Shown here: in pieces, positions 3,498-31,879 of the stretch | Numbering within the stretch: position 1 is the stretch's first letter | Layout of the letters: each line of letters starts with the position of its first letter | Virus record (IMG/VR): IMGVR_UViG_3300042691_044868 | Location: 1 to 64,000 of that record | Origin: a virus | Direction: 5' to 3' (one strand) | Length of the DNA stretch: 64,000 bases | The notes under the pieces: generated by a model | The model's database searches: none | What the model saw: only the letters and a program-made list of their open reading frames with translations | What the model was told of the DNA's origin: nothing | Position numbers and translations under genes: made by a program

Positions 3498-4761
3498 GAT
3501 CGTAAAAGCCCATCGCCCCAATTGCGGATGGTGACCCGGTCGACGTGAATGTGGCGAACGCAAGAGTTATCGTGTCACTTGTGCCAGTAAAGCTATTTCT
3601 CCCAAGCTGGTAAGAAAAGTTATAGTCAGCTACGATTATAGCTGGAGCAGCTGACTGGGCAGAGGCATCGAAATATCCCTGCTCAATTAGATCGCCACCG
3701 CTTATGGCTGTAGCCGCCACGTCGTAATCCACATTGGGGAATGCCGTTGTATTGTAAGATGCCCCGGTAAGCGTTCCGTTGCGGATGAGAAAGTACTCAT
3801 AACTTCCGGAAGAGGTAGGTTGAAGATGGTACTGTGATGGAAGAACAACCGCGTTTAGTCTGTCTGAAGCCAACCGTATTGTCACCAGCGGATAAATAGT
3901 TCCGGCCACCGTAGCAGCAACCGTTGTTGACCGTCTGGCGATACTTTGGACTGACTTTTTTTCGTAGCCTCCGTTGGAAATAACGGACACACAAATTTGT
4001 TTCAATGAGCTTGAACTTCCCGTGGTTCCGGTATTTTCAATTTCAAACCGAACCGGTAGGGTCGCTGACGTGATATAAACCGACGTGTTTTCGTTTGCGT
4101 TATTAAACTGGTGGGCAATGATCGGATTTCCGTTGATAACAAAACCCATTACAACTGATCCTACACCAAGCCATTCGTACTCTGAGAAAAGGATCTGGGA
4201 CTTGCTTGCATCAAGGGTTAGCCCGCTTGGGCCGGTTCCATCCAGCTTATCCCGGTTCCAGTCAGCCTGGGCCACCCGGGTATTGGAGACCATTCCAGAT
4301 ATGTAAGACCGTTTTACAAGGTAAAGGGACGTGTCGTCCTGCTCCAAATAGAATCCATTTTGGCTGGAAAAGTATCCAGCTCTTTGTCGAAGCCCGGTTT
4401 TTCCAGAATTAAACACAAACGTCTGTAGCACCTGCAAGCTTTTTCCAGGTTGGTAAGTAAAGACTCTGCGAGATTCCCGGTAAACATATTCTCCGGAAAC
4501 TGTCCCGATATTGAGGGAGGCCGAGCTTTGATTGACAAGATAGCTTACGCTTGCCCCAGCTCCGTTTACAGAGTCGGCAAAAAAGCCGTTGTCCTGGTAG
4601 ACGTGGGACGCGTCAAACAGCGTGGTCGGCTGCGAGATTTTAGTACGGCCAAATAAATCCCCGCTAAGGGAGTCGTCGAGTCTGCCGACTATTTTCTGTA
4701 GCGAGCGTACTTCCGTGTCTGACCAAAGAGGTCTATCGATCTCGGGAAAGTAATCGGGCAT
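3490..4761 (-). CDS. Phage structural protein, 423 aa
   Basis: A 423-residue beta-rich protein and the last gene of the leftward virion block. The region from about residue 110 to 265 has a signature I have seen in structural proteins of phages and large viruses: RQRAGYFSSQNG, then WNRDKLDGTG, EWLGVGSVVMGF, HQFNNANENTSVYIT, LPVRFEIEN and LKQICVSVISNGGY. It is probably a jelly-roll-like surface or decoration domain. The first 30 residues (IDRPLWSDTEVRSLQKIVG) may anchor it to the particle. No enzymatic motif. A weak TATAGC -10-like box lies 8 bases upstream of the ATG but I could not find a good -35. Confidence 0.6.
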   Translation of the reverse strand: MPDYFPEIDRPLWSDTEVRSLQKIVGRLDDSLSGDLFGRTKISQPTTLFDASHVYQDNGFFADSVNGAGASVSYLVNQSSASLNIGTVSGEYVYRESRRVFTYQPGKSLQVLQTFVFNSGKTGLRQRAGYFSSQNGFYLEQDDTSLYLVKRSYISGMVSNTRVAQADWNRDKLDGTGPSGLTLDASKSQILFSEYEWLGVGSVVMGFVINGNPIIAHQFNNANENTSVYITSATLPVRFEIENTGTTGSSSSLKQICVSVISNGGYEKKSVQSIARRSTTVAATVAGTIYPLVTIRLASDRLNAVVLPSQYHLQPTSSGSYEYFLIRNGTLTGASYNTTAFPNVDYDVAATAISGGDLIEQGYFDASAQSAAPAIIVADYNFSYQLGRNSFTGTSDTITLAFATFTSTGSPSAIGAMGFYDLT

Positions 4762-7694: not shown

Positions 7695-8246
7695 TTACTC
7701 CAATCTTCCGGCGAAACTCGATTCAACGAATCTTGGGTCCAGGCTCGGCAGATTGTCGAGGATGTACTGGATGTCCTTGTTGATGCGACCAACACCGGAT
7801 TTGTACTTCTTCAGGTTCTCAGTGAAATACCCACCGGAGTGAAGGCCGGTGACAAACTGGTCAATTGTCTTAGATCCAGGAACGTTTTTGTACCTGGGGT
7901 TGTCGCCAATAAATTTTGCATACTCTTCAAAAAAATTCTGGGGATTTTCAAAGGTCCTGAAGTTGCTCACCTCGGTCCTGCGGGTCGGGCCGTAACCTTC
8001 GGCTGACGCCATGGGTACGCTTGCCTGTCCGGCCCTGGCTTTGATGCCGGCAAGGTTTCCCTTTTTGGCCAGATCCGATTCACCCCACCCGGATTCGAAA
8101 GCCGTCTGGCTAAGAACAAAGCTGGGGTTGACCCGGAGTTTCTCAGCCGCGACCACGGCATTGGGAGCCTGATTGAGCACGTACTGAATCTTTTTGTCAG
8201 CTGCCGGCCCCAGTCTCTTTTTGATCTCAGCCAGTTTTTGGTCCAT
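7695..8246 (-). CDS. Glucosaminidase-type muralytic enzyme (GH73/FlgJ-like)
   Basis: A 183-residue peptidoglycan hydrolase of the mannosyl-glycoprotein endo-beta-N-acetylglucosaminidase family. The catalytic Glu is Glu51 in QTAFESGWGESDLAK, followed by GNLAGIKA and the FRTFENPQNFFEEYAKFI strand-helix typical of the family. It lacks a signal peptide. It lies directly downstream of the giant internal protein and far from the holin-endolysin pair, so a virion-borne, entry-stage role is more likely than lysis. Confidence 0.8.
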   Translation of the reverse strand: MDQKLAEIKKRLGPAADKKIQYVLNQAPNAVVAAEKLRVNPSFVLSQTAFESGWGESDLAKKGNLAGIKARAGQASVPMASAEGYGPTRRTEVSNFRTFENPQNFFEEYAKFIGDNPRYKNVPGSKTIDQFVTGLHSGGYFTENLKKYKSGVGRINKDIQYILDNLPSLDPRFVESSFAGRLE

Positions 8247-8260
8247 GGTCAGATCCTAGA

Positions 8261-11200
8261 TTATTGGTTTTCCGGAAGCAACTCCGCCTGTTTTTCGACC
8301 AGGCGTTTGACCTGTGATTCAATCAGGGCCTTGCGTTTAATCGGGCGAAGAACCCGGGATACGAGTTCCTTGGCGACATTGGGGTCCTGGGTGTTGAGGA
8401 TCGCGTCGAATACCTTCGGGTTGGACAGGACATTGACGATATCCGGTCCTGCCGCCGCCATCCAGTCGTACTTCTCTTCGGAGGAGAGGGTTTTGCCCAG
8501 GAACACGGCGTCGCTCATGGCCTTCTGGAACTGTTGGGGCGACATGCGTCCGGCGGCGTATTCAAGCTGGGCCTCCCTGACTGCCACGTCCGAGAGTTCG
8601 CTGGGGCTCCAGAGGATGCCCACGCGCTTGGCGGCAAGGAGGGCGAACACACGGGTTTCGGGATCTTCCGAGTTGATGTCAGCGCCCAGCGAGAAGAACC
8701 GTTTGGCGATCGGGATACCGCGCAGGAGCGGAATCTTGACGGGGGTCCCGAGCATGGATAGGTCAGGACGAAGAACTTTTCCAATTGTCTTTCCAGCTTC
8801 TGGGGACACGGCTTCAGCCGCCTCGGGGATCGAGGCCGCAAACGGAATACTTCTCAGGAAAGATCCGGTGATTCCGATCTTGGCCGGACGCCCAGCAGAA
8901 CTTTGTCTAAACGCGTCAACAACATTCTCCAAGTCGCGAAGGGTGGCGTAACCAGGAACAACGATTGTTCCCGCCAGATTGCCGACAAAGTCGGCCAACT
9001 CCTGGACCTTGCCTTGGGCTCCGGGCTGTCTGGGATACACCGCATTGAACACACGGCGCATTCCGTTCATAAAGGCCAGATCAACTATGCTGGAAGCAAC
9101 CATCGGAATTGCACCCAAAGCCGCGGTCATCGTGGCTTCAGCCTCGCTACGTTTGGAGTAACGGCTGGCTTCCACAAATATGGCAACCGGCAACAGAAAA
9201 CCGCTGACTCCGTACGGAAGAGATTCCCAGCTAATAAACTTGGGGGTACCATCAGCAAATCGTCCGATCTGAATGGATTTGGGTTTGGCCCCGGCGGCAG
9301 TCCATGCCTTGCGCTGGGCCGCATCTTCTGGGCCATTGTAATGCACCATAAACGCTGGGTCTTCTTCACGGTCCGGACCCCAAGCTCCGAAAGCCCGCAA
9401 GATGGCGAGCAATCCCATGGTTCCAATATGACCGATGATTACTTTTGCAAGCTGGATATTGAAAGCGTTGGTTCCCGGCTGCGCGGCCTGTCTGCGGTAC
9501 TTGGAATTCTTTTCGGTAAACGTTCCGGATCCAACCAGAAGACGCTTGAGGCTCCAGGCTGGCATCCAGTTAAGGGCCTCGTTGGTCAGACTGCTTGCCG
9601 TTTTCAAGAACTTGAAGATGGTGCGTAAAGTCCAATGACCGTTGGCAGCAAGGCGCTGGAGGCCAGCCATCAATTTTCCAAGTGAGCCCTCGAAGTCGTT
9701 GGTATAAGTTGCACGACGGGCAAATTCCGTGGACATCTCGGTGATGCGTTGGCCGTCTTCGTCGCGGCCCTGCTCAAGAATTTCTTCGATTCTCGCAAGT
9801 TTCTGAGAGGCATTTAAACCAAAGGTCTTAGCTTCCACTTCGGCTTGGGCGATAGCCCTCTCGCGGGCTTCCGGGGTGTAATTCAAAAGGCGTATGACTT
9901 CGGCATCCACATCGGCCTGCTCGGTGTATCGGGTAGTGGCAATACGATAAGCCTCGGCAATCTCCATGGCCTTCTTTGCCCCCATCTTGTTGAAAGCGTC
10001 GCCCATGGCCATGCCCTGACTGACCCACACGGCGGGGGTGAGGGCCGCGTTCATCACATTGCCGGTCACCGTATTGGGGTTCAGGGAAATAGTCATGCTC
10101 TGCCCCAACGGGAGGCTGATTTCCTGATAAGCGTCCTCGATAGGCAAACGACCTCGCTTGGCATTTTCAAACTTTTTCTTCATCGCCTGGAAGGTATTGA
10201 CTGTGGAGAAATTGTTGGCAACGGTCATATCTGCCGCAGCCGACAAGTCACCTTTGCGAACAATATTCAAGGCTGTCCAAGCCTCTCCTGTCCCGCCAAG
10301 CCACTTGGGAAGTGCCACTTGGAACAGGCGGGCAAATCCACGGAATCCGCCACCAGTACCGGTCTTCTTGAACAGACCTTCGATGCTGTTCATCGAACTC
10401 ATCAAAAACACATCCGTAGTCACCTGAAGTGTTCCTCCCCAGGTATTGATTCCGAGGGTGCTGATCGAGGCCAGCAAGTTGAAGGTTTGCAGGTCGACGA
10501 TCAAATCACCCCAGGCGATCGGGGCCGAAGTCTTGATGAACCCAAACAGATCATTGAGTCCGCGCATCCGGATACTGCCTTCCGGCATCTTGGCAATTTT
10601 CTTGATCTTAGCTTCGATCTCGGCTCGAACCTCCGGACTGACATCCGGCAGGCCGATGGAGTCGCGGATAACCTGGAAGACTGCGTCATTACGTAGGGCG
10701 CCGAGGTTGGCGGCATCCATCAAGCGCTGAAGAACACCGCGAATCTTTCGGGTTTTCCTTTCCTTGTTCTTTTCGTAGCGAGCCAGGATGTTAGCTAACT
10801 CCCTCTTCCGCTCCTGTTCGACCAGGGACTCCAGACTCTTGGACAGGAATCGGGTGATCTCCAGGCGCTTGGCCTCGGACAGATTAGTCTCCTTAAGAAG
10901 AAGATCGCGAAGTTTTCCGGTGAACGTGGAAATATCTCCGTCGCTTTGGCGGATCAGTTGGCGAATGTTTACCGACTCCCCACCGATGGTGTTGAGCTTG
11001 GTCAACGCGGCTTTGAGCTGAGACTGGCTGACTGGGGCCTGCATGGATTTGTCGATCAGGTTCTCAAGCGTCTCGCGGACATCTTCCGGATAATTGTTAA
11101 GAAGTTTGTCCCGGGTCAAATCCCAGGCCCGTTGCACAACCTCGAAGTTCGAGATAAGCGCCTTGACGTTCTGGGCTGCCGACGGAGGAATTGGACGGGG

Positions 11201-14200
11201 AAACTTTTCCTTGAGCGCCGCCTGTTCCCGCATGGCGGGCTTGATGATGCGGGCCAAATAACGGAAAAACTCTTCTACCTTCGGCTCCTGCCCGCTACGA
11301 GCAGCTTCCCGGGCGAAAGCCTGGGATAGGATTTCGCCGATTGCGTCGGCCATATCCTTATCCGGGTCCAGCTTAACCTTGCCCCGTCCCCGCGTCTTTT
11401 TCTGTTCTTCCTGATAACCACGCTCAGCTTGCTCGACGGTCGGAGGCGTGAAGACCGGGGCATTGCCCATGTTCTGGGCTTCCATCTCAAGACGGTTCCT
11501 GACCACCAAAGCAGCCGCCGCGCCGTAGAGATCAATCTGGTTTTGGTTAAGACCCATCCGGGCGAGGTAGGCGTTGAGCACATTACGATCCTCGAAGATT
11601 GAATCGACCGCATTGGGATCAACGGCGTTGACTTCCATGATGTGGGCCAGGATGGCATCAGCCAGATCGTTGACCGCATTCTTGTCCACCGGGATTTCAT
11701 CGTTAGGCCGTCCCGCCGGAGAAGCAGCCCCGATGCGGCGCTTGAACCGGTTGAGTGCATCCACCACGGCAGGGTTACGGTTGGCCCGGTTGATGACGGC
11801 GATGAGTTCGGAAACCCGCGGCGAGGAAGGATCTTTCGGGGCAACTTCCTTGAGAGTCTTGAGAAGTTTGTTGACTCCGGGAAGCTCGGTCAGCTGACCG
11901 ACAGCCCGGACGGTGGCGTCTTCCAAGGAGAGGCTGATTTCGTTTAGCTCGGGGAGGAAAGGTTCGACCTTAAATTCGGTTGCCTTGTTGAGAATCTTGT
12001 CAACCATCAACTGAAGACTGACAGGATTCCCAGCCACCTTTTCGAAGATCTTAAGATAATTGAGCGAACGTCCGGCTTCGCTTGCGTACTTCTTCATCAG
12101 GAACACGGAAAGATCGGCCATTTTCTCCTGGGCCGAAACATCCTCAAGTCCGTCGGCCTCAATCTGAGCCGACTGAGCCTGTAGGTCGGAAACAACCTGC
12201 ATGGCGATCGCAACTTCCAGGGACATCGGAACGCTCAAGCGATCCGAAAGCAACAGATTCAGACTTTCTTCCAGCCCATAAGTCTCGACAAATTGTCTGG
12301 CCTTCTGCTCGAGAACCTCCCTTGGCTGTTCCTGATACTCGGAATTTGCGCGCATGTAGTCCTGAAGCGATCCTTCGGGGGCCAGATCGGCCAACCGGTT
12401 AACGGCTTTGGAGTAGTTAATCTTCGGTCCAGATCCGGGGGCCGGAGCGTTGAGTTGAGAAACACGGCGGAAATAGGAGGAATAAGCCGGGGACTTTTTG
12501 ATGTCGTGGTAGAGAAGTCTCCATTCCTGTTCGGAATACAGCCTGCCCTCAAAAAGAACGGGCTGTCCTCCCCGGCCTTCGAAAAGCTTGATGACGGTTT
12601 TGACAAGCCCGTCATTGTTTGATTTCCCCGAGGAGTAGACAGGATCAGTGTTGGGCAGAGTGAGGGCAACCCGGAAGGTGGGTTTGATTTTGATCCCCCT
12701 CTGTTCTTTGGAAATACGATGGATGCGGGGATCGGGGCGGAACCTGAGGGTAAGAGGAACTGTCTCTCCTTTGGCATCAGTAATGATCGGGTCGGCTGGG
12801 GTGATCGCGGAAGGCAGAACAACCGCACCGGGCCAGTTGCGTCGGGCGCGCTCAAGCGCGTGCTGGAAGTTCAACCCGTTCATTCCGTCCACGAGCACAT
12901 TCCCGTCGCTGAATTTCACAACAACCGTGATCTCTGTCTTGTAATCCACCTCTGCGTAATTTTTTAACTTGGACCCATCGGCCCGGTAACCGAGATAAAT
13001 GTCGGGCGTCAGAACATAGCCTGTGTCGGGATAGGAACGGGCAAACTGCACCGCCACGTTTTCAAAAATCTTCCTCGCTTTGGCGGTCTCATTGGCGGCA
13101 ACCGCTCCCATGTAGGCGGCATTGTCCAGCTCGGATACAAATAGCCCGCGGCTTCCCGGGGCGGCAACTTCAAGCCTGCGATCCTTGGTCAGGAATTCAA
13201 ATTGTTTGCGGATAGCCCGTTCGAGTTCGAACCGCTGTTCGGACTCCAGAGCGTCCCTGAAGTTAACTTGTGCGTCATCGAGACGCTCCAGGCTGATCTT
13301 CCCTTCGGTAAAATTAGCAGGGATTACGCCAACCCGAACAAGGTTTTCGATCAGGTCGTTAAGCGGTATTTTACGGGTGTAAAGGATCAGGGGAACAGCC
13401 GTCGGTAGCGACTTCAGACCTTGATCAAAGGCTTCCTTGCTTTCAAAGGTAACTTCACCCTTAAGCGCGGCGTTTTGAGGGGAGGTCTTAAACGCGCTGT
13501 AAATCTTTCCGTTGATGAAGTTTCTCTTGGCGTACTCCGGAATCTGCGAGAACGGAACGTTTCCGAAGTCGGCGAATCCTTGAATCGTAAACTCGTCGTT
13601 CGTTGCCAAACCAAGCCTGACCAAATCAGCCTGAAGTTGCTGGACCGGGATCTTGGCGAGGGCGTCGATGACGGCCTGGAAGTCCCCGGCCTGGGCGATG
13701 TTGGCGAACAGAACCTCAGAACTGGACAGACTCAAGGGTACGGTTACATCTTCCGCACCTTCCGCAACCTGGGGTTTTCCAAGAACCGTGGCTCGCAAGA
13801 CCATGGCCTTGTCGTAAAGGCTCTTCCATTCCAGGTATTCCGCATAAAACGGATCCATTGGGAGACCGGTATAAACTCCGCCCCTGCTTTCTCCCAAAGA
13901 TTCGAAGTCCGCCAGAATCCGCATCAACGAGGCAAACTTCCACTGATCGGACTCCACGTCATCGTTAGGGCCTGCCTGTTCAGAAACCCTGGCAAGCTCC
14001 TGGTTGATGAAATCCTTGAGAACCGTGTCTTGTCCATCGATGATGGCTTGAACTGGGCTTTCGACCGGTTCCGCCCCTTCCTGGGTGGTGGGAGCGTCGG
14101 AAACAATAAGCAGGGCTTCTCTTGGAATGGCGATTCTCTGTTCTTCGGAAAGAGCCGTCCAGATGTCCATGGCGGCGCTGTTGACGTCACGCAGACTTGT

Positions 14201-17200
14201 CCTTACCTCACCCATCACCTGTTCGGTGGCACCACGGAAAATGTCATACTCAATCTTGGTGATGATTCCGTTGGACAAAGCCGCGTCGAGGGCAGTCAAC
14301 CACGCATCAGTGTCAACGGTCCTGCCATCATCCATGGCTGCCCGGACACCGAACACGGACTGGTTGACGTCGAAATCCAAGTAAAGTTCAATCTGCCGGT
14401 GAAGGCGAAGATCGTATTTATCCTGATCGTTGAACGGACGGGCCTGGTTCGGTGAGACACCTTTAAAGGGTGCTTCGACCGGCGTCAGGTCGGAATTGAG
14501 ATTTTGCAGGCTGGAAATAGTATTTTTCAGAACTTGGTCGACGATGTTTTCAACGTTGGCCAATCCCACCAACTTGCCGTCTTTTTGCACAACCTTGAGG
14601 GCTTCCAATAAGGCGTTGAGCCAACGCATAATGGCTTCACGGATTCCAGCTTGTTTGGACTGAGAAGTTTGGTACACGCTGTTAACAAAGAGCGTAGTCC
14701 GGCGCTTAACGGCTTGTGCCGCTTCTCCGCTCAACCCCATCAGAAGTCCTTCTTCGGTGGTCATTCCAAGGACTTTCAAGTCCACGAGCTGGCGAACATA
14801 TTCAAGCGCGACGAGCTGTCTGTTGCCCGCCATGGCATTGACAAGTTTTTGAACACCAGGTGTGTCAAGCGACAGGCCTCGGTTGGCATAGTAAAGTGAT
14901 GCCACCTGCTGACGAAGGGAGGCTGGCATGATCAATCCAAGCCGTTCGGCTTCCACGCCGGGATCTTTTCCGTCAGCGCGTAGAATCTCAAAGCTCTTTA
15001 TGTGGACAACTTCCTCGAAGGCCCCGAGCACAAGGAACGTTTCAATTTCCTCTGGTGTACGCAAGTTGTAAAAATCCAGCACAGAAGCGAGTTCGTCCGG
15101 ATTGACAACAATGGTGTCCTCACCGTTTGCTGCTCCTGGGACTGCGAGCAGTGCATGCGGAGAGGTTGGGTCAATGACAATATTGTTTTTGAAGCTGGGG
15201 AACAGCCGCTTGACGATTGCCTTAAACTCATCAACTCGCGTCGTTGTGGCAGCGGGAGTCGACGAGGTCGGAGCGCTCGAGAAAGTCTGTTCTCCGGTAA
15301 AGAGCCTTGCAATCGCCGGACCGTCCTCGGCAGTAAGAGCTTGGCCACCACGGGAAACCACGGCCTGGCCGGGGCCAAACGCCACCGTAAACCCGAGAGC
15401 CTTGGCCCTGGCTTCGAGCGTGCCTGCCCGAGCGTCGGCATCGGGGCTCATTGTGTCGAACCGCACCACGATTCCAGCGTCATTGCCGCTCTCAACCACC
15501 AGACCGGATTCGACCAGGCTCTCGACGATCGGCTTGGCAACAACATCAAGCTTAACCCCGTTGGCGTCCAGCAGTTCATTGGTCTGGGCAGCCGCGTCTT
15601 CCGGATCAATTAATTCCGTTACGGCGGACGAGTTATCCTGCTTGGGGGTTTCTTTACGAAGTTCCGTTTTGGGCTGCTCGGTGACTCCTGGTTCGCCTGG
15701 AAGTTGTTCTTTTACGTCAACAGAATCCTCTTTAATAACCACCCCGAATAACTCGTAAAAATTTAAAGCTGGGTGAGGTCCAATTTTATTTGTCGTACCC
15801 TCCTCGTAGGGACGTAAATCAAATTCTTTTGGTTTTAGACCAGTTCGGCTTCTCCAAGCAGCAAACGTCTCGTCTTGAGTAGGTTTCCACCATTCCAAAG
15901 GTTTTTTCTCGAAATCTATAAAACTATTTTCTGCCGCTATCTCTAAGAATTTATCTACTTGATATCCAGCAAAGCCCATTAATTTTAAAATAAAATTGGC
16001 ATTCTCATCACCAAGAATTTGATTTGAAAAAAGACCATACTGTAAAATAATAGGATAACCATTTTCATTTACCTCTGCGGCAAGATCAATTATTTTATTT
16101 TGTAGTTTTTGAAACGGAGAAAGTTCCTGTGCGGCCTGGGCCTGACGGCTGAGGATCGGGGTGGAGTTAACATCAAGGGCGGAGAACCCCGCACCCATGA
16201 CGGTTTCCAGATTGCGGAGGCGGCGGCTTAGGCGATCCAAGGCCCACTGATCGGCTTGGGTGTCTCCGATATAAAGTTTAACTGCCACGTCGCTGGCGGT
16301 GTCCAAACGGAAAATACGGTAAATAACCTGGACGATTTCGATTGCGGAAAGGGGAGGAGTAATGATGTACATCGATCTGGGGCTGTCTCCAACCTTGTCG
16401 TCCATCTCGATACCGACTCCACCCTTGGAGGTTGTGGTGATAAGAAGTTGGGCATTCTGCTTGTTAAAGCTGTCGAGTGCCGTCGCATTGGTATCCGATT
16501 CTCCGTGATATTCGGCAAACACGATCGGGTTTTTGCCTTCCTTAACGCGTCTTTCGTTAATCGCATTCAGTTTGGTCCGGACAATATCGGCGGTTGCGGA
16601 CACGCTTAGAATATTTTCCCGGGTGACAACATTTTGAATATCAGACTCGTTGACCGAGTTGACGACAAATACGACCTTCCTACCGCTGTCAATGTCCTTT
16701 TCCGCATTATCCAAGGCCAGATCGATTTTAAACTCCTCGACTGCGCGCCGTTGTTCCAGAATCATGGAGCTCATCATCCGGCCGGTCAGATTTTCCAGAC
16801 CGGTCTGTTCCTCGATAAACCGCACGCGCTCTTTGGCTTCCTCGGGCAACGTCACATCCACCCGGTTTACCTTCACACCTTCCAGGGAAAGGGATCGGGA
16901 GGAGAGATATCCATGTGCGGCCAGGTCTGCAATCAGCCTGTCGAGCATTTCGTCGGCTTGCTCCTGCGTATATTCCGGAGCCAACTCCCAGGTATATTTT
17001 GTCTTGCCTGCGCGGTAAACCTTGGTCATGCCAAGAGCCGTCATCAAATTGGCCTTTTTCTCGTCCAGCGATTTTCCGGGAATATTGTCCATCACACCAA
17101 GTCTTTGCAGGGAGAACAACTGGTCGGGCGTTTCGATAGGAGAACCGGACGCAAAAATCACCCGACCTGCTTTCATAGAAGCTTCCAACGCCTTTAAGAT

Positions 17201-20200
17201 TCGGGATTCCCCCTTACCTTTTTGCTTAGCCTTATGGACGTTTCTGAGTTCCTGATGCTCGTCAATGATCAGGATGGTATTTTCATCCATGAATGGAAGC
17301 AGGTCTTCCAAATGCTCATGGGTTGTCACCAGCATGTGGTCGGGGCTTAAAGAATCCTTGTCTATGGGTTTTTCTTGTGTCCCACGCAAAATCGTCGGGA
17401 TATCGAAAGCTTCATTTCCGACGGCCTTAGCCAAAGTCCCGGCAAACTTTCCGCGTCTCCAGTCTTTTTTGGGGTCCATGCCCAGCGCCTGCGTGGTTGA
17501 AGCATAAACAACCTTGTATCTCTTCTTGGGGTCGTTCATGTAATGCTTCGCGGCACCGCAAAGAACGTAAGTTTTTCCGGTACCGGGCCCCGCAAACAAA
17601 CCGAAAGCCCTCTGGGCCGTTGTCTCCAGCTGCGAGATAATCGATCCAAGATCGAATAACTGCTCTTTTTTCAGGATATTTTTAATACCCTGGGAGATTT
17701 TTTTGATTACGCTGGGGTCGCGCTGGCTGGTTCCTTGGCCGCGGGTGAAGACGAATTTTTTCGGAGTGGGAGTGCCTTTTTTGACAGGTTGAACTGCCGC
17801 TCCAGCAGGTTCTCCTCCGGGCTTAACACCAGCGAGTCGTCCTGTTTGAACAGCTCCTGTAGGCTTGGGTTCACCCGCTTTAGCGGGTCCGGCATCGGCA
17901 CGGGGCTGTGCCTCAGGTTTTCCTGGAGCAGTTTCTGTCCTAAGCGCCGTCGATCTTTGAACTCCGGGCTTTCGGGTTCTGGAGTTTTGTTCTGCGGCTC
18001 TGTTAGCTTCTTTGATTGTTTCTTCTTCTTGTTGGTCGACATATCCTGCCTCCTTTTGTGCTCTTTTGGTTACGGAAATAAGAGTATCCCTTAGATCCTT
18101 AACAGCTTTGATTTTCTTTGAAACGTTGGTTTCACCTCCGCTTTGGTTAAACTTGGCGACGGCGGCTTCAATCTCCTGTCTGAACCCATCGAGTTGTTGT
18201 TGGGAAAGGCTGTCAGCGAACGTCTCGAGTTGAACATCCGTATCGGCCAACAGATTGGCCGGATCGGTCTCTTCGGAAACGCTGGCGGCAATCATGCCTT
18301 GCAGATAGCTTTTGATCTTGATTGCATTGTCGGCATCCCGTGAGACGGTGATTCCAACAATCGGACTACCAGTCGGAGCATTGAGCAACATGTTGTAGTC
18401 GGAAGGCGTGATATAATCCAAGGCCAGAGCTTCCTCGATCTGCTTAATGACAAGATTGACGTCCGAGTCGGAAATATCCTGGGCGTCCATTTTCCGATCG
18501 GTAACCGGTTTCTTGGGCGTGGCGACTACTTGGGTGACGGCACCCTGAGGCGTTTGAACCTGCACAGTCTGAGCCACCGGAAGAGTTCCGGCTTTTTGGC
18601 GGGCTTGGAATTCCTTTTGAGCCAGAGTTTGGAATTGTTTGCGAAGAACCAACTGGCGACGGACAACGGTTTGCTGGGACTTATTGATCTCAGCGGCAAC
18701 CTGCTTTGAAGTCTTTAAATTTCCGCCCTCATAAGTCGAGTCAAAAATAGCCTTGTCTTCGTCGGTCGGCAGACTTTCCCGGAACTGGGAGCGTACTTCC
18801 TCAAGCAAAAGTCGCTTGGACTCCAGCTGGTCTGTTTCGGTTCTTTGACGTTTGAGGTTTTCATCTACCTGATCGGAAACCGATTTCTCTTTCGCTGCGG
18901 CTTCTTGTCGTTCCGTTTCCCTGCCGACAGCTTCTTCTCCGGCAGTTTCGCCCTCACCTGCACCCATCTCTTCTTTATAAGGAACCATGAGGCCCCGTTG
19001 CTGTTTTAATCTTGGCCACGCTTTTTCGATAAGTTTTGATTCGAGCTGGTCGAGCGCGGTAGACAAATAAAATGGCGTCTTGCCTTTACGAACGTACTCT
19101 TGAAATCTGTTCCTCAAAGCCGCCATCAAATTCGCGGCAAAATCGAATTGTTTATAAGCCGCATACTTCCTGGATTCAAAAATGCCTTGCTTGGCCTTAA
19201 TAAAGGCCTCCACAGTTTCTGCGGCAGTCAGCAGAACATCCCCTGTGTTTTCATCAATCGCCCCGATATCCTTCAACATCTTGACGGTGGACTCGTTATT
19301 CTTATCGAAAACCTCCCAGAATAATTCCCTGTTTATCTCCCGCTCACTTACTGGGGTGTTCTTCAAATAAGTCATCGTTTCCCCCTCTGGATTGAGTTCG
19401 GGAATCGTGAGTGTATCGCTCAAACTTATTCTGCCTTGGTTTAATTTTCGGTCTGCGTCGGCTTCTTTCTCGTCCAAATCTTTTTCTTTCTCCTCGGAAA
19501 CCCGCGCAAAAACCTCGGCTTTGAGGGCATTTGCCCGTTGACGGAGTGCGGTGGCTTGTTGCTTTAGAATTTGGGCCTGTTCAGGAACCGACTCCTCGGC
19601 TTCCTTGTCCAGACGATCGGCCTCCGCCAGATCGAAGCGGATCTTCGGATTGTTTTGAGCGCTGAAATCCAAGGCAAAAAAGTCATCGATCTTTTTCTGT
19701 TGAGCCGCTTCGATTGGTGTTTCCCCGATATACTGTCTTTCAATCTGGGCTATCTCCCCGACACTTGTAGCTTTGCTTAGGTATCGTTCGTAAATATCGT
19801 CCAATTCACTTTCAGTATACTTTTTAGTGTTCCGGATTCGGTCAAGGGCTTCTTCTTTGTCGATTGAGAAGGCTTCTTTAGGGTCATCTTCACCTAACCA
19901 GACCGGGGAATCCTTATCCCCGGTCCTTACACCAAGAATCAAAAGATCACCTGTGGCCTCATCAAGTTTTGTATAAACATCGCCGCGACCGTCAAGCTGA
20001 CGGGCTAGGGCTTCTGTCTGTGGGCTTGCCTTGAAACGTATGGTTTTCTCCCCGTTTCGGCTCATTCTGTCCGCAAGATTGTCGTAAATCAAAACGGAGT
20101 TTTCCGCTTTTTCAACGTCAAATTCAAAGTTAGGAACTCCGACAATGTCTTCCTCTCCTTCGACTTCGATTGGTGCTCCTGCCTCGGGTTCTGTGACTGA

Positions 20201-21895
20201 TGGGGCGGGGGGCTGGGTTCTTTTTGTTTCGGCATCGTCCGCAAGTTTTTCCGCCAGCTTGTTGGCTTCCTCGTCTACTTTGGCTCCGGCATCCCCAACT
20301 TGCTTGGTAAGTTCTTGGTGAGTTTGCGGAGAAACACTTTTGTCGACTCTATCTAACGCCGCTTTTTTGGTCACGCCGTCAAAAACTGTGTCAAAAAGAG
20401 GAACAAAATCTTCTCCAATATTACCCCGCAAATCCTGCAATCGTTCGTTCTTGTCTTCCTGGGATAGATTCGGGTCGTTCAAAACGGCCCCAATTTGTTC
20501 CCGAAAAGCAATCGCCTTAAAAAGATTTACCTTCTGCTGTAAGTTAACGTAATTCTTGCGGAACCCCAAAGAACGCATCCCCAAACCAGCACCGGCAGAA
20601 GCTGCAAAAGATTCGGCGGCGGTAGCCACCGGATCTTGTCCGCGCAGAATGGCTTCAACTTCCTCGGAAGCAAATTCTCCCAGGGTCATGGCTGTAGCGC
20701 CGAGGGCAGTCTGAGCGGCTGCCCCGGCTAAAGGAGCATTTTTTGAAATTGACTGTTTTGCTATTCTCCGCGCCAGGGTGTTTTCTAGACTTTGTTCCAA
20801 CGATTCGCCAACACGCTCGGCCCCATACAGGGTAATGGCTTCAGTGCCAACATCGACCAAACGGTCATACCAAGGAAGATCCCGTTTGTCGCTTTTAAGC
20901 GACTGACTAGCCCCAAGAATACCGTAAGCCGTGGCCGAAGCTGCTTTCGGGCCTTGAATCAGTTTGCGGGCCAAACCTGTTCCCAGCGCAAATTGTCCAA
21001 GCGAGCCGAGTACTGATCCAGCCAAGGTGGATTTAAGATAATCCGTAGTGATAACTTCATTAATTGCCTCGGTTAAAGCCGCTCGCTTTGCCACCTGATC
21101 GGGATTTTTTTCGTCGATAATAATATCACCGATATTCACGAAGGGTACAAAAGCATCGCCCGTTTTTACCGCAAAATTTCGTAGGCCGGCTGTACCAAAA
21201 GCTTTTGTTTTGTCGTCTTTAAGATCGTTTAAGTATTCCTGGGCGCGCCCCAAAGTCATACCGACTGCCGGTAGTTCTCCAAGTTTCATGCCAACCTCAA
21301 CAAGATCGCCATCCGGTTTGGCAATCTCCTTGCCTTCATCCAGATCCTTTTTGAACTGGGCTCCTTTGGTCATGGCAAAACGGATATCGAAATCGTCCGT
21401 AAGATCGCCAATGTATTGGCGAGCAATCTGAGCCTGGTTCAGGGCTTCAATGTCTTTTTCATCGAGGCCCTGGGCATAACGGGCTCCGACGGCAAACTGA
21501 CGGCCCATTGCCTTGGCTGTCCCCCAAAGCTGTTGAAGAGCGGATGCCTCCTGGCCGGTGTCCTTCTTGATCTGCCCCATTTCCTTGAAGTAATCAGAAA
21601 TGACCTGTTGACTACCTTTCTCGAAGGTAGCGGCGGCTTCTGGAGATCTGTCCGTCAAAACCCTAAAATTAAGAAGCCCGCCTTTTTTGGTCGGGTTATC
21701 CCGGGCCTGTTTCATCACGGCGGGTAAATCGCCGATATCTGAAAGCTGGGTCAGGTCTCCGGAAAAAGTGTCGCTAGACTCGTTAAGCGAGAGATCTCCG
21801 GGTATAGCAATGACCTCATCGGTGGATTCGTCAATGACGATATCTTCGGGGTCCGATTGATCAAGTAGCGGATTAAGGGTGTCTTCGGGGGGCAT
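8261..21895 (-). CDS. Giant multidomain virion-type protein, 4,544 aa, with SF2 helicase
   Basis: One uninterrupted 13.6-kb frame. Visible regions: acidic N-terminus; Gly/Ala hydrophobic segments near 290-430; coiled-coil stretches; a segment at about 890-1090 that resembles sigma-70 regions 2 and 4; a Pro/Ala linker at 1290-1390; a full SF2 helicase at about 1430-1900 (Walker A GPGTGKT near 1437, DEHQ box near 1544, ASGSP motif III, QVIYRIFR motif VI near 1850); an EEVVH metallopeptidase-like motif near 2295; long helical stretches; and a C-terminal module (about 3880-4544) with hydrophobic segments near 4150 and 4230. The pattern matches 'large polyvalent' phage proteins that are packaged and ejected with DNA (DarB-like proteins have SF2 helicases). 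It lies between two internal-type proteins and a muralytic enzyme. No methyltransferase or N4-type RNA polymerase motif was seen. Confidence 0.75.
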   Translation of the reverse strand: MPPEDTLNPLLDQSDPEDIVIDESTDEVIAIPGDLSLNESSDTFSGDLTQLSDIGDLPAVMKQARDNPTKKGGLLNFRVLTDRSPEAAATFEKGSQQVISDYFKEMGQIKKDTGQEASALQQLWGTAKAMGRQFAVGARYAQGLDEKDIEALNQAQIARQYIGDLTDDFDIRFAMTKGAQFKKDLDEGKEIAKPDGDLVEVGMKLGELPAVGMTLGRAQEYLNDLKDDKTKAFGTAGLRNFAVKTGDAFVPFVNIGDIIIDEKNPDQVAKRAALTEAINEVITTDYLKSTLAGSVLGSLGQFALGTGLARKLIQGPKAASATAYGILGASQSLKSDKRDLPWYDRLVDVGTEAITLYGAERVGESLEQSLENTLARRIAKQSISKNAPLAGAAAQTALGATAMTLGEFASEEVEAILRGQDPVATAAESFAASAGAGLGMRSLGFRKNYVNLQQKVNLFKAIAFREQIGAVLNDPNLSQEDKNERLQDLRGNIGEDFVPLFDTVFDGVTKKAALDRVDKSVSPQTHQELTKQVGDAGAKVDEEANKLAEKLADDAETKRTQPPAPSVTEPEAGAPIEVEGEEDIVGVPNFEFDVEKAENSVLIYDNLADRMSRNGEKTIRFKASPQTEALARQLDGRGDVYTKLDEATGDLLILGVRTGDKDSPVWLGEDDPKEAFSIDKEEALDRIRNTKKYTESELDDIYERYLSKATSVGEIAQIERQYIGETPIEAAQQKKIDDFFALDFSAQNNPKIRFDLAEADRLDKEAEESVPEQAQILKQQATALRQRANALKAEVFARVSEEKEKDLDEKEADADRKLNQGRISLSDTLTIPELNPEGETMTYLKNTPVSEREINRELFWEVFDKNNESTVKMLKDIGAIDENTGDVLLTAAETVEAFIKAKQGIFESRKYAAYKQFDFAANLMAALRNRFQEYVRKGKTPFYLSTALDQLESKLIEKAWPRLKQQRGLMVPYKEEMGAGEGETAGEEAVGRETERQEAAAKEKSVSDQVDENLKRQRTETDQLESKRLLLEEVRSQFRESLPTDEDKAIFDSTYEGGNLKTSKQVAAEINKSQQTVVRRQLVLRKQFQTLAQKEFQARQKAGTLPVAQTVQVQTPQGAVTQVVATPKKPVTDRKMDAQDISDSDVNLVIKQIEEALALDYITPSDYNMLLNAPTGSPIVGITVSRDADNAIKIKSYLQGMIAASVSEETDPANLLADTDVQLETFADSLSQQQLDGFRQEIEAAVAKFNQSGGETNVSKKIKAVKDLRDTLISVTKRAQKEAGYVDQQEEETIKEANRAAEQNSRTRKPGVQRSTALRTETAPGKPEAQPRADAGPAKAGEPKPTGAVQTGRLAGVKPGGEPAGAAVQPVKKGTPTPKKFVFTRGQGTSQRDPSVIKKISQGIKNILKKEQLFDLGSIISQLETTAQRAFGLFAGPGTGKTYVLCGAAKHYMNDPKKRYKVVYASTTQALGMDPKKDWRRGKFAGTLAKAVGNEAFDIPTILRGTQEKPIDKDSLSPDHMLVTTHEHLEDLLPFMDENTILIIDEHQELRNVHKAKQKGKGESRILKALEASMKAGRVIFASGSPIETPDQLFSLQRLGVMDNIPGKSLDEKKANLMTALGMTKVYRAGKTKYTWELAPEYTQEQADEMLDRLIADLAAHGYLSSRSLSLEGVKVNRVDVTLPEEAKERVRFIEEQTGLENLTGRMMSSMILEQRRAVEEFKIDLALDNAEKDIDSGRKVVFVVNSVNESDIQNVVTRENILSVSATADIVRTKLNAINERRVKEGKNPIVFAEYHGESDTNATALDSFNKQNAQLLITTTSKGGVGIEMDDKVGDSPRSMYIITPPLSAIEIVQVIYRIFRLDTASDVAVKLYIGDTQADQWALDRLSRRLRNLETVMGAGFSALDVNSTPILSRQAQAAQELSPFQKLQNKIIDLAAEVNENGYPIILQYGLFSNQILGDENANFILKLMGFAGYQVDKFLEIAAENSFIDFEKKPLEWWKPTQDETFAAWRSRTGLKPKEFDLRPYEEGTTNKIGPHPALNFYELFGVVIKEDSVDVKEQLPGEPGVTEQPKTELRKETPKQDNSSAVTELIDPEDAAAQTNELLDANGVKLDVVAKPIVESLVESGLVVESGNDAGIVVRFDTMSPDADARAGTLEARAKALGFTVAFGPGQAVVSRGGQALTAEDGPAIARLFTGEQTFSSAPTSSTPAATTTRVDEFKAIVKRLFPSFKNNIVIDPTSPHALLAVPGAANGEDTIVVNPDELASVLDFYNLRTPEEIETFLVLGAFEEVVHIKSFEILRADGKDPGVEAERLGLIMPASLRQQVASLYYANRGLSLDTPGVQKLVNAMAGNRQLVALEYVRQLVDLKVLGMTTEEGLLMGLSGEAAQAVKRRTTLFVNSVYQTSQSKQAGIREAIMRWLNALLEALKVVQKDGKLVGLANVENIVDQVLKNTISSLQNLNSDLTPVEAPFKGVSPNQARPFNDQDKYDLRLHRQIELYLDFDVNQSVFGVRAAMDDGRTVDTDAWLTALDAALSNGIITKIEYDIFRGATEQVMGEVRTSLRDVNSAAMDIWTALSEEQRIAIPREALLIVSDAPTTQEGAEPVESPVQAIIDGQDTVLKDFINQELARVSEQAGPNDDVESDQWKFASLMRILADFESLGESRGGVYTGLPMDPFYAEYLEWKSLYDKAMVLRATVLGKPQVAEGAEDVTVPLSLSSSEVLFANIAQAGDFQAVIDALAKIPVQQLQADLVRLGLATNDEFTIQGFADFGNVPFSQIPEYAKRNFINGKIYSAFKTSPQNAALKGEVTFESKEAFDQGLKSLPTAVPLILYTRKIPLNDLIENLVRVGVIPANFTEGKISLERLDDAQVNFRDALESEQRFELERAIRKQFEFLTKDRRLEVAAPGSRGLFVSELDNAAYMGAVAANETAKARKIFENVAVQFARSYPDTGYVLTPDIYLGYRADGSKLKNYAEVDYKTEITVVVKFSDGNVLVDGMNGLNFQHALERARRNWPGAVVLPSAITPADPIITDAKGETVPLTLRFRPDPRIHRISKEQRGIKIKPTFRVALTLPNTDPVYSSGKSNNDGLVKTVIKLFEGRGGQPVLFEGRLYSEQEWRLLYHDIKKSPAYSSYFRRVSQLNAPAPGSGPKINYSKAVNRLADLAPEGSLQDYMRANSEYQEQPREVLEQKARQFVETYGLEESLNLLLSDRLSVPMSLEVAIAMQVVSDLQAQSAQIEADGLEDVSAQEKMADLSVFLMKKYASEAGRSLNYLKIFEKVAGNPVSLQLMVDKILNKATEFKVEPFLPELNEISLSLEDATVRAVGQLTELPGVNKLLKTLKEVAPKDPSSPRVSELIAVINRANRNPAVVDALNRFKRRIGAASPAGRPNDEIPVDKNAVNDLADAILAHIMEVNAVDPNAVDSIFEDRNVLNAYLARMGLNQNQIDLYGAAAALVVRNRLEMEAQNMGNAPVFTPPTVEQAERGYQEEQKKTRGRGKVKLDPDKDMADAIGEILSQAFAREAARSGQEPKVEEFFRYLARIIKPAMREQAALKEKFPRPIPPSAAQNVKALISNFEVVQRAWDLTRDKLLNNYPEDVRETLENLIDKSMQAPVSQSQLKAALTKLNTIGGESVNIRQLIRQSDGDISTFTGKLRDLLLKETNLSEAKRLEITRFLSKSLESLVEQERKRELANILARYEKNKERKTRKIRGVLQRLMDAANLGALRNDAVFQVIRDSIGLPDVSPEVRAEIEAKIKKIAKMPEGSIRMRGLNDLFGFIKTSAPIAWGDLIVDLQTFNLLASISTLGINTWGGTLQVTTDVFLMSSMNSIEGLFKKTGTGGGFRGFARLFQVALPKWLGGTGEAWTALNIVRKGDLSAAADMTVANNFSTVNTFQAMKKKFENAKRGRLPIEDAYQEISLPLGQSMTISLNPNTVTGNVMNAALTPAVWVSQGMAMGDAFNKMGAKKAMEIAEAYRIATTRYTEQADVDAEVIRLLNYTPEARERAIAQAEVEAKTFGLNASQKLARIEEILEQGRDEDGQRITEMSTEFARRATYTNDFEGSLGKLMAGLQRLAANGHWTLRTIFKFLKTASSLTNEALNWMPAWSLKRLLVGSGTFTEKNSKYRRQAAQPGTNAFNIQLAKVIIGHIGTMGLLAILRAFGAWGPDREEDPAFMVHYNGPEDAAQRKAWTAAGAKPKSIQIGRFADGTPKFISWESLPYGVSGFLLPVAIFVEASRYSKRSEAEATMTAALGAIPMVASSIVDLAFMNGMRRVFNAVYPRQPGAQGKVQELADFVGNLAGTIVVPGYATLRDLENVVDAFRQSSAGRPAKIGITGSFLRSIPFAASIPEAAEAVSPEAGKTIGKVLRPDLSMLGTPVKIPLLRGIPIAKRFFSLGADINSEDPETRVFALLAAKRVGILWSPSELSDVAVREAQLEYAAGRMSPQQFQKAMSDAVFLGKTLSSEEKYDWMAAAGPDIVNVLSNPKVFDAILNTQDPNVAKELVSRVLRPIKRKALIESQVKRLVEKQAELLPENQ

Positions 21896-21908: not shown

Positions 21909-23423
21909 TTATTCCTTGGCGCCAGCCACATTACCAGAGCTTGTTCCGTTTGTCTTCAAATTTCTGTAGTTGAGTAACCCTGCGTATCCGCCAAGTTTGG
22001 CAAACCTCTCGTCGGCGTAGTCCCGAACGCTCATCTTTACAGAGGTACCATCTTTTCTCTTGACATTTATCATTTGGGATGGGTTGGCCAAAACCAAAGT
22101 TTCAGCAAGAGTTTGTGCCTGCTGGTCCAGTCCGGCTTTCGCGAAAGGACTTGTGGCGCGTGTCGGAGTCGGAGCCGGGGCTGTTTGCACAGTCTGCGGT
22201 GCTGGCGCGGCGGCTGGGGCTCCCGGTTTGGCGGCCCCGGATAGTAATGCTTCAATAGGATCATTGGGGGCGTATCTGGCCCTGTTCCGGCTTCTCCAGG
22301 CTTCGTTCTCTTTCCGGGCTGACGTTGTAATAGTTCCGTCCAAAGGATCAATGTGACCGTCTTCTCCAATAAAATCCTTTAGGAAGGTGGGGGGTTCTTC
22401 GATTGCGGTATCCGGGAATCTCTGTTTTAACGTCGCAAGCATAACTTGGTTCTGCTGGTTAGTCATATCGATCCATTTGTCAGAACCTCTTTTGTAAAAC
22501 TGCATACCCAATTGCGTTATCTCATCCTGAAAAGCCGCCGAAGTGGGCCTGACATCCGCCGGATAAGCTTCCAAAACTGCATTAAACTTTTCCTGCGTCT
22601 CCGGATCGGCTTTTTTCAACTCGCCGAGAATACCAATCTGGTAAAAATTCCGGAAGTTTTGTTGGCTTTTATCGGACCGAGCAGCCTTGAATTGGTTGTT
22701 AAGATTCTCGATCGAATCCATGAAATACTTGCGTGCCTCCGGATCGTTGTTACCGATTGAAGCGTAACTCTGCTGGGCGCCGGACAAAATCCCCTGAAGC
22801 TCATTGGCCGTCAAAAGCTGAACAGGAGTTTGCTGAAGCTGGGCGGCAAGACCGTAAACTCGGTCGTTGGTTCTGAGGTTGATGGTTTCCTGTTCTAAAG
22901 CGCGCTTCGTATTGACGGCTTCCTTCGCGGCTTTCTGCGCCGCAAGGGTTGCGGCGGAGGATTGAAGCATGCCGGAAGCTCTTTGGTTTGCCGCCATGAT
23001 TTTCTCGGGATCGCCCGAATCATAAGCAATCTCGAGTTCTGCCTGCATGACGGAAGAGTTCTCCTCCATCTGGCGTTTGCGTGCTTCTTCCTGAGCCTTG
23101 ATGGCCTCTTTCTGCATGTCGAACTGAAGCCGTCGTTCAGCCAGGTCGTCGGAAAATGACTTTTGACCCTGCGACAAACGGTATTTTTCCAGATCCGTGG
23201 CGTACTGAAGCTGTTGGTTTTCCAACTGCTGAGACTGCAAGTCCCGCTGGGCCGCATTATTCTCCCGTTGGGCGGCAAGCTGGGCATACCCGAGTGCGTT
23301 GGCGGAAGTGGCGCGATACGCTTCAAGGCTGAGTTGTTGACGCTGACGAGCGTCTTGCCTCAGGTCATTGAGGAATCCTCTAACCTGGCTTACGTAATCG
23401 GGGGCGTTGGGGCTTAGGGGCAT
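21909..23423 (-). CDS. Putative internal virion protein, coiled coil, 504 aa
   Basis: A 504-residue protein. Residues about 20-200 are Gln/Ala/Glu-rich heptad repeats (strong coiled coil); the middle is helical; residues 380-430 form a Pro/Ala linker; and the C-terminus has a small globular part (VKMSVRDYADERFAKLGG). It begins MPLSP, close to the MPLGK tag of smaller genes downstream. Such proteins are typical of podovirus inner cores. It lies 13 bases upstream of the giant gene, suggesting a shared particle location (inference). Confidence 0.5.
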   Translation of the reverse strand: MPLSPNAPDYVSQVRGFLNDLRQDARQRQQLSLEAYRATSANALGYAQLAAQRENNAAQRDLQSQQLENQQLQYATDLEKYRLSQGQKSFSDDLAERRLQFDMQKEAIKAQEEARKRQMEENSSVMQAELEIAYDSGDPEKIMAANQRASGMLQSSAATLAAQKAAKEAVNTKRALEQETINLRTNDRVYGLAAQLQQTPVQLLTANELQGILSGAQQSYASIGNNDPEARKYFMDSIENLNNQFKAARSDKSQQNFRNFYQIGILGELKKADPETQEKFNAVLEAYPADVRPTSAAFQDEITQLGMQFYKRGSDKWIDMTNQQNQVMLATLKQRFPDTAIEEPPTFLKDFIGEDGHIDPLDGTITTSARKENEAWRSRNRARYAPNDPIEALLSGAAKPGAPAAAPAPQTVQTAPAPTPTRATSPFAKAGLDQQAQTLAETLVLANPSQMINVKRKDGTSVKMSVRDYADERFAKLGGYAGLLNYRNLKTNGTSSGNVAGAKE

Positions 23424-23426
23424 AAA

Positions 23427-24437
23427 TTAGGCAAAAGGATTATAGGCTGATCCGGTGAAGTAGTTGCTTTTTGTTCCTGGGAGATATGGTTTTGCTGTGC
23501 TATAAGTTCCAGGTTGGAATCCAACATACATACCTTTGGTAACGTCAAACATGCCCGGCCTGGGCTGATTCATGTAATCCATCAACAACTGCTGGGTAGC
23601 CAGCTGTTGATTGATCGAAGCCTGCGACGTCGCGGTATCAAATATCTGATTGGGCGAAATCTGATACTGAGCCGCATAACGCTGTTGCATAATCTGCGGA
23701 ATGGCCGATGCCATCTGCTGGGCTTGCTGTTGAAGACCAAGCGACGTTGTAAGAATATCCCTGGCGCCAAAAGCACGTTGAATGCCCCCGGCACGACGAC
23801 CTCCACCGACGCCAAGACCCGATCCGTACCCAGATTGGGCGATTGAGCGCTGGGTTTGGGCGAGAACACTCTGGGGTATTTTTCCAGCTGCGTAATCGGA
23901 TGCAGACTGCGATAGGGCACGAAGGGTGGCTTCTTCCCCGGGAGTCGCTCTTTTATATTCCTCAATAGTCGGTAGGTTGGCTTCCTGCACACGCTTGCCC
24001 ATCTGGGTGTAGTCGAGCTCTAGTTTCGGAAGCTCGGGAAGTTTTCCCATATAAAATTCTACTTCTGTCGGCGGTAATACGGTCACGTTTCCTCCTCCTC
24101 CGCCCCCATAACTTACTCTGGAAGTGCTAGGACGGCTTCTTGGTTGATTGTTTAATCCCAAATAATTTCGCATGGCATTGCTTCCGGTAGACAATCCGGG
24201 GCCGCTGGAATACATGGTATTAAAAGCACTTTGACGACCCATGAAATCATTCCACTCTTCCCCAGGCATACGCGGAAGAGATCCAAAACCTATAGCCCCC
24301 GGGGTCGTTGCGCTTTTTATATCCTGAGCGTAACGGTAATCTTCGTAGGATTTAAATCCGCTAAAACTTCCTGGTCCTGAGCCGAGTTGCGGAGTGTATC
24401 CACCAAAAACATTGGAGCCTGATGTGATGGTAGCCAT
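23427..24437 (-). CDS. Putative virion protein, 336 aa
   Basis: A 336-residue protein with a Gly/Ser-rich first third (including a five-Gly run after VSYGG), a middle helix, and a Gln-rich helical segment (LGLQQQAQQMASAIPQIMQQ). No enzymatic motif. The mixture of low-complexity and helical parts is common in internal or tail-assembly proteins of podoviruses. It is 3 bases from the 504-aa gene, so they are co-translated. Confidence 0.45.
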   Translation of the reverse strand: MATITSGSNVFGGYTPQLGSGPGSFSGFKSYEDYRYAQDIKSATTPGAIGFGSLPRMPGEEWNDFMGRQSAFNTMYSSGPGLSTGSNAMRNYLGLNNQPRSRPSTSRVSYGGGGGGNVTVLPPTEVEFYMGKLPELPKLELDYTQMGKRVQEANLPTIEEYKRATPGEEATLRALSQSASDYAAGKIPQSVLAQTQRSIAQSGYGSGLGVGGGRRAGGIQRAFGARDILTTSLGLQQQAQQMASAIPQIMQQRYAAQYQISPNQIFDTATSQASINQQLATQQLLMDYMNQPRPGMFDVTKGMYVGFQPGTYSTAKPYLPGTKSNYFTGSAYNPFA

Positions 24438-31851: not shown

Positions 31852-31879
31852 AGTATGCCGGTTGGGTTTTACGAGTCAA
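31852..31879 (-). promoter_or_regulatory. Promoter for the Gly-repeat adhesin gene
   Basis: TTGACT (31879-31874), 16-base spacer, CATACT (31857-31852), then 7 bases to the ATG at 31844. The -35 overlaps the stop codon of the upstream nuclease gene. Confidence 0.6.

What the first reader, a model, noticed from the sequence alone, without database searches (positions are those of the whole stretch)
8261..21895. A 4,544-residue probable virion protein that carries a complete SF2 helicase
Seen: one continuous frame with all SF2 motifs (GPGTGKT, DEHQ, ASGSP, QVIYRIFR), an EEVVH motif, coiled coils and hydrophobic end modules. Known: packaged 'polyvalent' phage proteins such as DarB carry helicases and protect or prepare incoming DNA. 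Inference: it is ejected with DNA and works on it in the first minutes. Its domain order is not one I recognise, and it has no methyltransferase.
Basis: partly seen in the sequence, partly recalled or inferred. Interest (0 to 1): 0.8.

Follow-up and report, generated by a model that had tools for sequence, protein, structure and literature searches.

The report
Giant phage injection protein carrying DNA motor
A bacterial virus from environmental DNA encodes one 4,544-residue protein whose tail end is related to proteins that podoviruses inject ahead of their DNA and whose middle is a DNA-tracking motor, so the virus probably sends a motor into the cell together with its genome; comparable giants are known, but without this combination.

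Summary
Window 8261-21895, MINUS strand, is one 4,544-codon frame; ten independent relatives carry full-length homologues (3,737-4,238 aa). All SF2 motifs, including the Walker lysine and motif VI arginines, are invariant in 11 sequences; helicase dN/dS is 0.008-0.036. Fold search puts the module with SWI2/SNF2 dsDNA translocases, so it is probably a translocase rather than an unwinding helicase. SNF2-bearing giant podovirus virion proteins are known (JC1 gp69, 4,515 aa, found by MS), so this is a new variant of a known kind. Most novel reading: an ATP-driven genome-uptake motor built into the ejectosome.

The parts
8261..21895 (-). 4,544-aa giant internal-virion / polyvalent-type protein gene
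20216..21538 (-). N-terminal conserved Gly/Ala-rich module, residues 120-560, function unknown
   Evidence: conserved in 11 relatives
16166..17698 (-). SNF2-type SF2 translocase/helicase, residues 1400-1910
14696..15178 (-). zincin-like domain, residues 2240-2400, with EEVVH in place of HExxH
15002..15016 (-). EEVVH motif, residues 2294-2298
12746..14095 (-). lineage-specific insertion, residues 2601-3050, absent from ten relatives
8726..10753 (-). C-terminal module homologous to internal virion protein D, residues about 3715-4390, with the strongly hydrophobic segments
7695..8246 (-). glucosaminidase (murein hydrolase) gene next to the giant; the sister clade has a similar gene in the same place
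   Evidence: PF01832 1e-20, PHROG endolysin, sister clade
21909..23423 (-). 504-aa gene immediately upstream, conserved in clade A, probable core protein (position only)
23427..24437 (-). 336-aa gene upstream, probable virion protein (position only)

Best explanation
It is a giant podovirus internal-virion (ejection) protein built like a polyvalent protein. The C-terminal chassis is homologous to internal virion protein D, the protein that in T7-like phages is packaged in the head core and injected to form the inner end of the DNA conduit (homology shown, function inferred). The middle carries a SNF2-type dsDNA translocase (fold and motifs shown, activity inferred). After ejection with the genome the motor most likely binds the first incoming duplex and tracks along it with ATP, displacing or colliding with host DNA-bound defence proteins such as restriction enzymes: DarB-like protection without methylation (inferred). 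The zincin-like domain originally cut the giant into working pieces; in this virus its first histidine is glutamate, so cleavage may be lost or altered (inferred). The separate glucosaminidase encoded next to it opens the wall (inferred).
For: C-terminus to internal virion protein D: hhalign P 99.3, E 1.7e-20 against proteins that belong to PHROG 6651 'internal virion protein'; E 1.1e-21 (clades A+B) and 1.2e-14 (clade A alone) against six gp16-position proteins of cultured podoviruses, with four other segments of the giant giving nothing as controls. Direct tblastn of the C-terminus hits P-SSP7 gp16 at only E 0.4: the right gene, not significant alone. Those homologues lie directly before the tail fibre gene in T7-like late operons. 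Late-operon position with a murein hydrolase next to it in both clades. Translocase. Cargo logic: the sister clade keeps the C-terminus but has no P-loop. Precedent for packaging: JC1 gp69, a 4,515-aa DarB-like protein, second in score in purified virions with 51 unique peptides (PMC9144972). Polyvalent context, SWI2/SNF2 ATPases and zincins: PMC5512222.
Against: No proteomics for this virus or any relative, all being uncultured contigs. The link to T7 gp16 itself is not detectable, so gp16 function is carried over through T7-like phages of which one (P-SSP7) had its gp16 assigned by synteny and size. The C-terminal fold could not be modelled (pLDDT 53). Anti-restriction is an analogy: the methylase of the DarB dyad is absent. 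ATPase and DNA binding are untested.
Confidence: 0.6

Rival explanations
1. ATP-powered uptake motor: the translocase, held at the inner end of the ejection conduit by the fused C-terminal module, pulls the phage genome into the cell.
For: Physical fusion of a SNF2-type dsDNA translocase to an internal-virion-protein-D module; published models leave an unexplained transcription-independent 'enzymatic' ratcheting by gp16-C (PMC8954989); no methylase to make a DarB-type modification dyad.
Against: The sister clade has the same chassis without any P-loop, so the motor is not needed for entry in general; motor and C-terminal module are about 1,800 residues apart; no data on entry.
Confidence: 0.15
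2. Motor cargo acting on host DNA or host complexes after ejection (host takeover), not on the phage genome.
For: Polyvalent proteins carry diverse host-directed effectors (PMC5512222); the sister clade carries other, unidentified cargo.
Against: SNF2 ATPases in polyvalent proteins are mainly coupled to DNA-protection modules; nothing here points to a host target.
Confidence: 0.1
3. Not a virion protein: a late-expressed non-structural giant, for example a packaging or recombination factor.
For: No proteomics; the phage is uncultured.
Against: C-terminal homology to internal virion proteins, position in the late operon, and virion-packaged analogues; the phage has separate terminase and SF2 helicase genes.
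Confidence: 0.07
4. The SF2 module is a pseudo-enzyme kept as a structural or DNA-binding part.
For: High divergence: only 12-16% identity to solved SNF2 proteins.
Against: All catalytic residues invariant over 24-37% identity and dN/dS 0.008-0.036.
Confidence: 0.04

Closest known systems
DarB-like giants of Bcep22-like podoviruses (BcepIL02 gp70 4,667 aa; JC1 gp69 4,515 aa)
   Same: Size, single late gene next to virion genes, SF2/SNF2 ATPase followed by a zincin-like HExxH segment (seen by eye) and a C-terminal hydrophobic module; JC1 gp69 is in the virion by MS.
   Different: They add an N-terminal SLT transglycosylase, a DNA methylase, LPD3 and LPD38. Only the helicase shows a weak profile match (E 4e-4, probability 35%); their C-terminus is not detectably related.
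Internal virion protein D / gp16-position ejection proteins of T7-like podoviruses (PHROG 6651; P-SSP7, HTVC025P, S-CBP42, ProddE)
   Same: C-terminal ~270-470 columns homologous; late-operon place.
Polyvalent proteins (Iyer et al. 2017, PMC5512222), including P1 DarB and N4 virion RNAP
   Same: Multidomain giant with SWI2/SNF2 ATPase and zincin-like peptidase beside late virion genes.
   Different: There the MTase is described as nearly always fused to an SF2 helicase, whereas here the ATPase has no MTase; no known LPD domain matches; no gp16-type chassis appears in the passages read.
Strawberry-notch-like SWI2/SNF2 ATPases (Pfam AAA_34, Helicase_C_4)
   Same: Best Pfam matches of the module; SNF2 fold.
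   Different: Only 12-16% identity to solved SNF2 proteins; the C-terminal winged helix was not established.

Membership tests
SF2 / SWI2-SNF2 ATPase | Walker A and B, motifs III, V, VI with arginine fingers | tested here: met
   Invariant in 11 sequences
SF2 / SWI2-SNF2 ATPase | SNF2-type two-lobe fold | tested here: met
   Foldseek top hits all SNF2-family ATPases, E about 1e-11, best TM (target) about 0.6-0.65; model pLDDT mostly 60-88 in the core
SF2 / SWI2-SNF2 ATPase | DNA-stimulated ATPase or translocation | not testable with these tools
   needs protein
Internal virion protein D (PHROG 6651, gp16-position) | sequence homology of the C-terminal module | tested here: met
   profile-profile E 1.7e-20 and 1.1e-21 with clean controls; a single-sequence HMM scan did not reach it
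Internal virion protein D (PHROG 6651, gp16-position) | place in the late operon after tail and core genes | tested here: met
   compared with 38, 90, 93; neighbours mostly placed by position, not by homology
Internal virion protein D (PHROG 6651, gp16-position) | murein hydrolase domain in the same polypeptide (as in T7 gp16) | tested here: not met
   no such Pfam domain in the giant; a glucosaminidase is the next gene
Internal virion protein D (PHROG 6651, gp16-position) | detectable homology to T7 gp16 itself | tested here: not met
   the cultured T7-like homologues fail the same test
Internal virion protein D (PHROG 6651, gp16-position) | present in the virion core and ejected | not testable with these tools
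   no cultured relative with proteomics
DarB / DarB-like antirestriction protein | adenine methylase fused to SF2 helicase | tested here: not met
   no MTase domain or NPPY-type motif
DarB / DarB-like antirestriction protein | LPD38-type C-terminus (Bcep22-like branch) | tested here: not met
   hhalign E about 0.06-0.1, no match
DarB / DarB-like antirestriction protein | protects incoming DNA from restriction | not testable with these tools
   needs phage genetics
Polyvalent proteins | several unrelated domains with disparate activities in one polypeptide encoded beside virion genes | tested here: met
   SNF2 ATPase, zincin-like domain and ejection module in a late operon
Zincin-like metallopeptidase | HExxH | tested here: not met
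   EEVVH here; HExxH in L077, L082, L086 and in clade B
Zincin-like metallopeptidase | three strands, motif helix, second helix with conserved Glu | tested here: met
   predicted strands within 2238-2264, motif helix 2281-2307, invariant Glu 2365 in helix 2359-2376; moderate confidence

The most novel reading that the evidence does not exclude
The fusion of a dsDNA translocase to the internal-virion-protein-D chassis is an ATP-powered motor carried by the virion that drags the phage genome into the cell. It would supply an energy source for the transcription-independent 'enzymatic' first step of podovirus DNA entry, as a lineage-specific upgrade of the ejectosome.
Probability: 0.15. Interest if true: 0.85.

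Novelty: new variant of a known kind. Interest (0 to 1): 0.55.

Why it matters
How the first stretch of podovirus DNA is pulled through the ejection tube, and how phages shield DNA before any gene is expressed, are both open. This family places a SNF2-type dsDNA motor in the same polypeptide as an ejection-protein module, with a sister clade that lacks the motor. That gives a natural comparison: same chassis with and without motor, with and without an intact zincin motif. Profiles from this family also extend polyvalent proteins to viruses that domain libraries miss: apart from the helicase, no module of the giant matches Pfam.

Tried and rejected
Direct single-sequence searches: no phage hit for residues 1-3000 at 1e-5; no PDB sequence hit; peptide-pattern scans of viral contigs with the whole protein, the helicase or the C-terminus alone found nothing; the terminase did find the kin. 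Helicase and C-terminus patterns in 84,980 prokaryote genomes: no confirmed relative. A relative's helicase against phages: none at 0.01. Considered a true DarB homologue: rejected on the missing methylase and unrelated C-terminus. Considered LPD38 as the C-terminal identity because of visual similarity to Bcep22-like tails: rejected by profile comparison. C-terminal AlphaFold model too poor to search. A PDB profile search with the C-terminus gave only a chance match. Considered 'EEVVH' as a chance motif: rejected, since E and H are invariant and three relatives have HExxH. Searched the ~450-aa insert for relatives: none.

Full report
What is there. The window is bases 1-64,000 of a 70,964-base virus record. 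The finding is real but lies on the minus strand: 8261-21895 is one frame of 4,544 codons, 19% of the record. Upstream in the same direction are terminase (PHROG 2), a capsid-like gene by position only, a virion structural protein (27278-29212, PHROG 3287), and 336- and 504-aa genes. Directly downstream is a glucosaminidase gene (7695-8246, PF01832 1e-20).

Relatives. The phage is far from cultured phages: the giant's first 3,000 residues hit nothing in 50,697 phage records. The terminase finds 75 related loci in viral contigs. Searching their records with the giant and fetching the regions gives ten full-length homologues of 3,737-4,238 aa (clade A), plus partial ones; the full-length ones are about 27-33% identical over the matched stretches. 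In a second clade (terminase about 69% identical) the same place holds giants of 3,843-3,922 aa (clade B, L092 and L095). Clade B shares with clade A only the C-terminal ~660 columns (BLAST E down to 3e-18; hhalign E 4.1e-22) and, weakly, the zincin region (E 5.6e-4 but only 30% probability). Clade B has no GxxxxGK[ST] anywhere and no Pfam match.

The motor. Pfam places residues 1422-1603 in AAA_34 and DEAD, and the helicase region of nine of 11 relatives also matches Helicase_C_4, the Strawberry-notch C-domain. All catalytic motifs are invariant in 11 sequences. The AlphaFold model of residues 1400-2599 is moderate overall (pLDDT 60) but mostly 60-88 in the helicase core. Foldseek's best PDB matches are all SWI2/SNF2 ATPases (CSB, Isw1, Ino80, Chd1, Rad54; E about 1e-11), and many viral matches are SNF2-type too. 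SNF2 enzymes are thought to move along duplex DNA without separating it (PMC5512222), so 'helicase' should be read as 'probable translocase'. Between close relatives the helicase shows dN/dS 0.008-0.036 and is the most constrained of the four modules compared. A separate ordinary SF2 helicase (45426-46730) is found in all but one of the 25 records of both clades that were searched, the exception being a short fragment; so the giant's motor is not the phage's only SF2 enzyme.

The EEVVH domain. In the alignment the second E and the H are invariant. Three clade A members read HERDH, HEREH and HEVVH, and clade B reads HEVAH. The model has three strands, a helix with the motif, and a later helix with the invariant Glu 2365, which is the zincin core described for polyvalent proteins (PMC5512222). 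In this virus the first metal ligand is replaced by Glu; whether it still cuts is unknown.

The C-terminal module. A profile of clades A and B matches, at P 99.3 and E 1.7e-20, proteins of four distant contigs. In these the protein precedes a tail fibre gene in a T7-like late operon and belongs to PHROG 6651 'internal virion protein' (E 2.3e-12 to 1.4e-73). Homologues in cultured podoviruses are annotated internal virion protein D. A profile of six such cultured-phage proteins matches the giant's C-terminus at E 1.1e-21 (clade A alone 1.2e-14), while four other segments of the giant give nothing. T7 gp16 itself is not reached, and neither do the cultured T7-like homologues reach it, in keeping with the reported strong divergence of ejection proteins (PMC8954989). 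The early tblastn hint to P-SSP7 gp16 (E 0.4) is the same link. The structural model of this part is too poor to use.

How it most likely works. Shown: the giant frame, the conserved SF2/SNF2 module, the zincin-like domain, homology of the C-terminus to ejection proteins, the late-operon place, and the absence of an amino-methylase motif. Inferred: it is packed in the head core and ejected first, its C-terminal module helps form the inner end of the conduit, and the motor engages the first incoming duplex. I consider protection of incoming DNA most likely (knocking off or blocking defence enzymes, as DarB is thought to do, but without methylation), and an ATP-driven uptake motor the most interesting alternative. 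Current models leave an unexplained 'enzymatic' ratcheting step in gp16-C. Clade B shows that the chassis can exist without the motor, so the motor is probably an accessory and not essential to entry.

Comparison with known systems. Giant SNF2-bearing podovirus proteins are not new: BcepIL02 gp70 (4,667 aa), JC1 gp69 (4,515 aa, in virions by MS), Parlo (3,764 aa, with helicase and methyltransferase domains); a Bacteroides phage has a 16.7-kb gene annotated DarB-like. BcepIL02 gp70 has the order transglycosylase - methylase - SNF2 - zincin-like HEAFH (seen by eye) - LPD38. The window protein has the same core order without transglycosylase and methylase. Its C-terminus is unrelated to LPD38 as far as profiles show, and it is instead tied to internal virion protein D. 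It therefore works like a DarB-type polyvalent protein but is not filed as DarB. It is a new variant: a gp16-position ejection chassis with swappable cargo.

Limits. No proteomics, no host, no biochemistry. Relatives are metagenomic contigs. The alignments are shallow (11-13 sequences). The function of the N-terminal module, of residues 560-1380 and of the window-only ~450-residue insert is unknown.

Noticed in passing
L092:1198-12966 and L095:4333-15864 (minus): Sister-clade giants share the C-terminal ejection module and an HEVAH zincin motif but have no P-loop and no Pfam match; their middle is unidentified.
   Followed up: partly
window 12746-14095 (minus): About 450-residue insertion in the giant, absent from ten relatives and without relatives found in viral contigs.
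   Followed up: partly
L080:5460-16712 and L085:3038-14629: Helicase modules nearly identical (pN 0.038) but C-termini strongly diverged (pN 0.291), suggesting recombination between modules of the giant.
   Followed up: no
window 31876-32298 (minus): PD-(D/E)XK endonuclease (PF11645, 7.6e-15) inside the structural operon, possibly a homing-type insert.
   Followed up: no
window 1756-2451 and 597-1241 (plus): Ogg-type HhH DNA glycosylase and a GP88 homologue.
   Followed up: no
window 29218-31017 (minus): 599-aa protein with a collagen-like GPQGPQG start and repeated 'VDTNVLFVDTSANAVGI'-type units, fibre-like by eye.
   Followed up: no
L138:5441-7789 (record 67440-69788, plus): 782-aa protein that looks rIIA-like (GHKL-type ATPase) by eye; not tested.
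   Followed up: no
window 55369-56355 (plus): Trypsin/HtrA-like serine protease by eye, near a tRNA-Tyr (56790-56872 minus).
   Followed up: no
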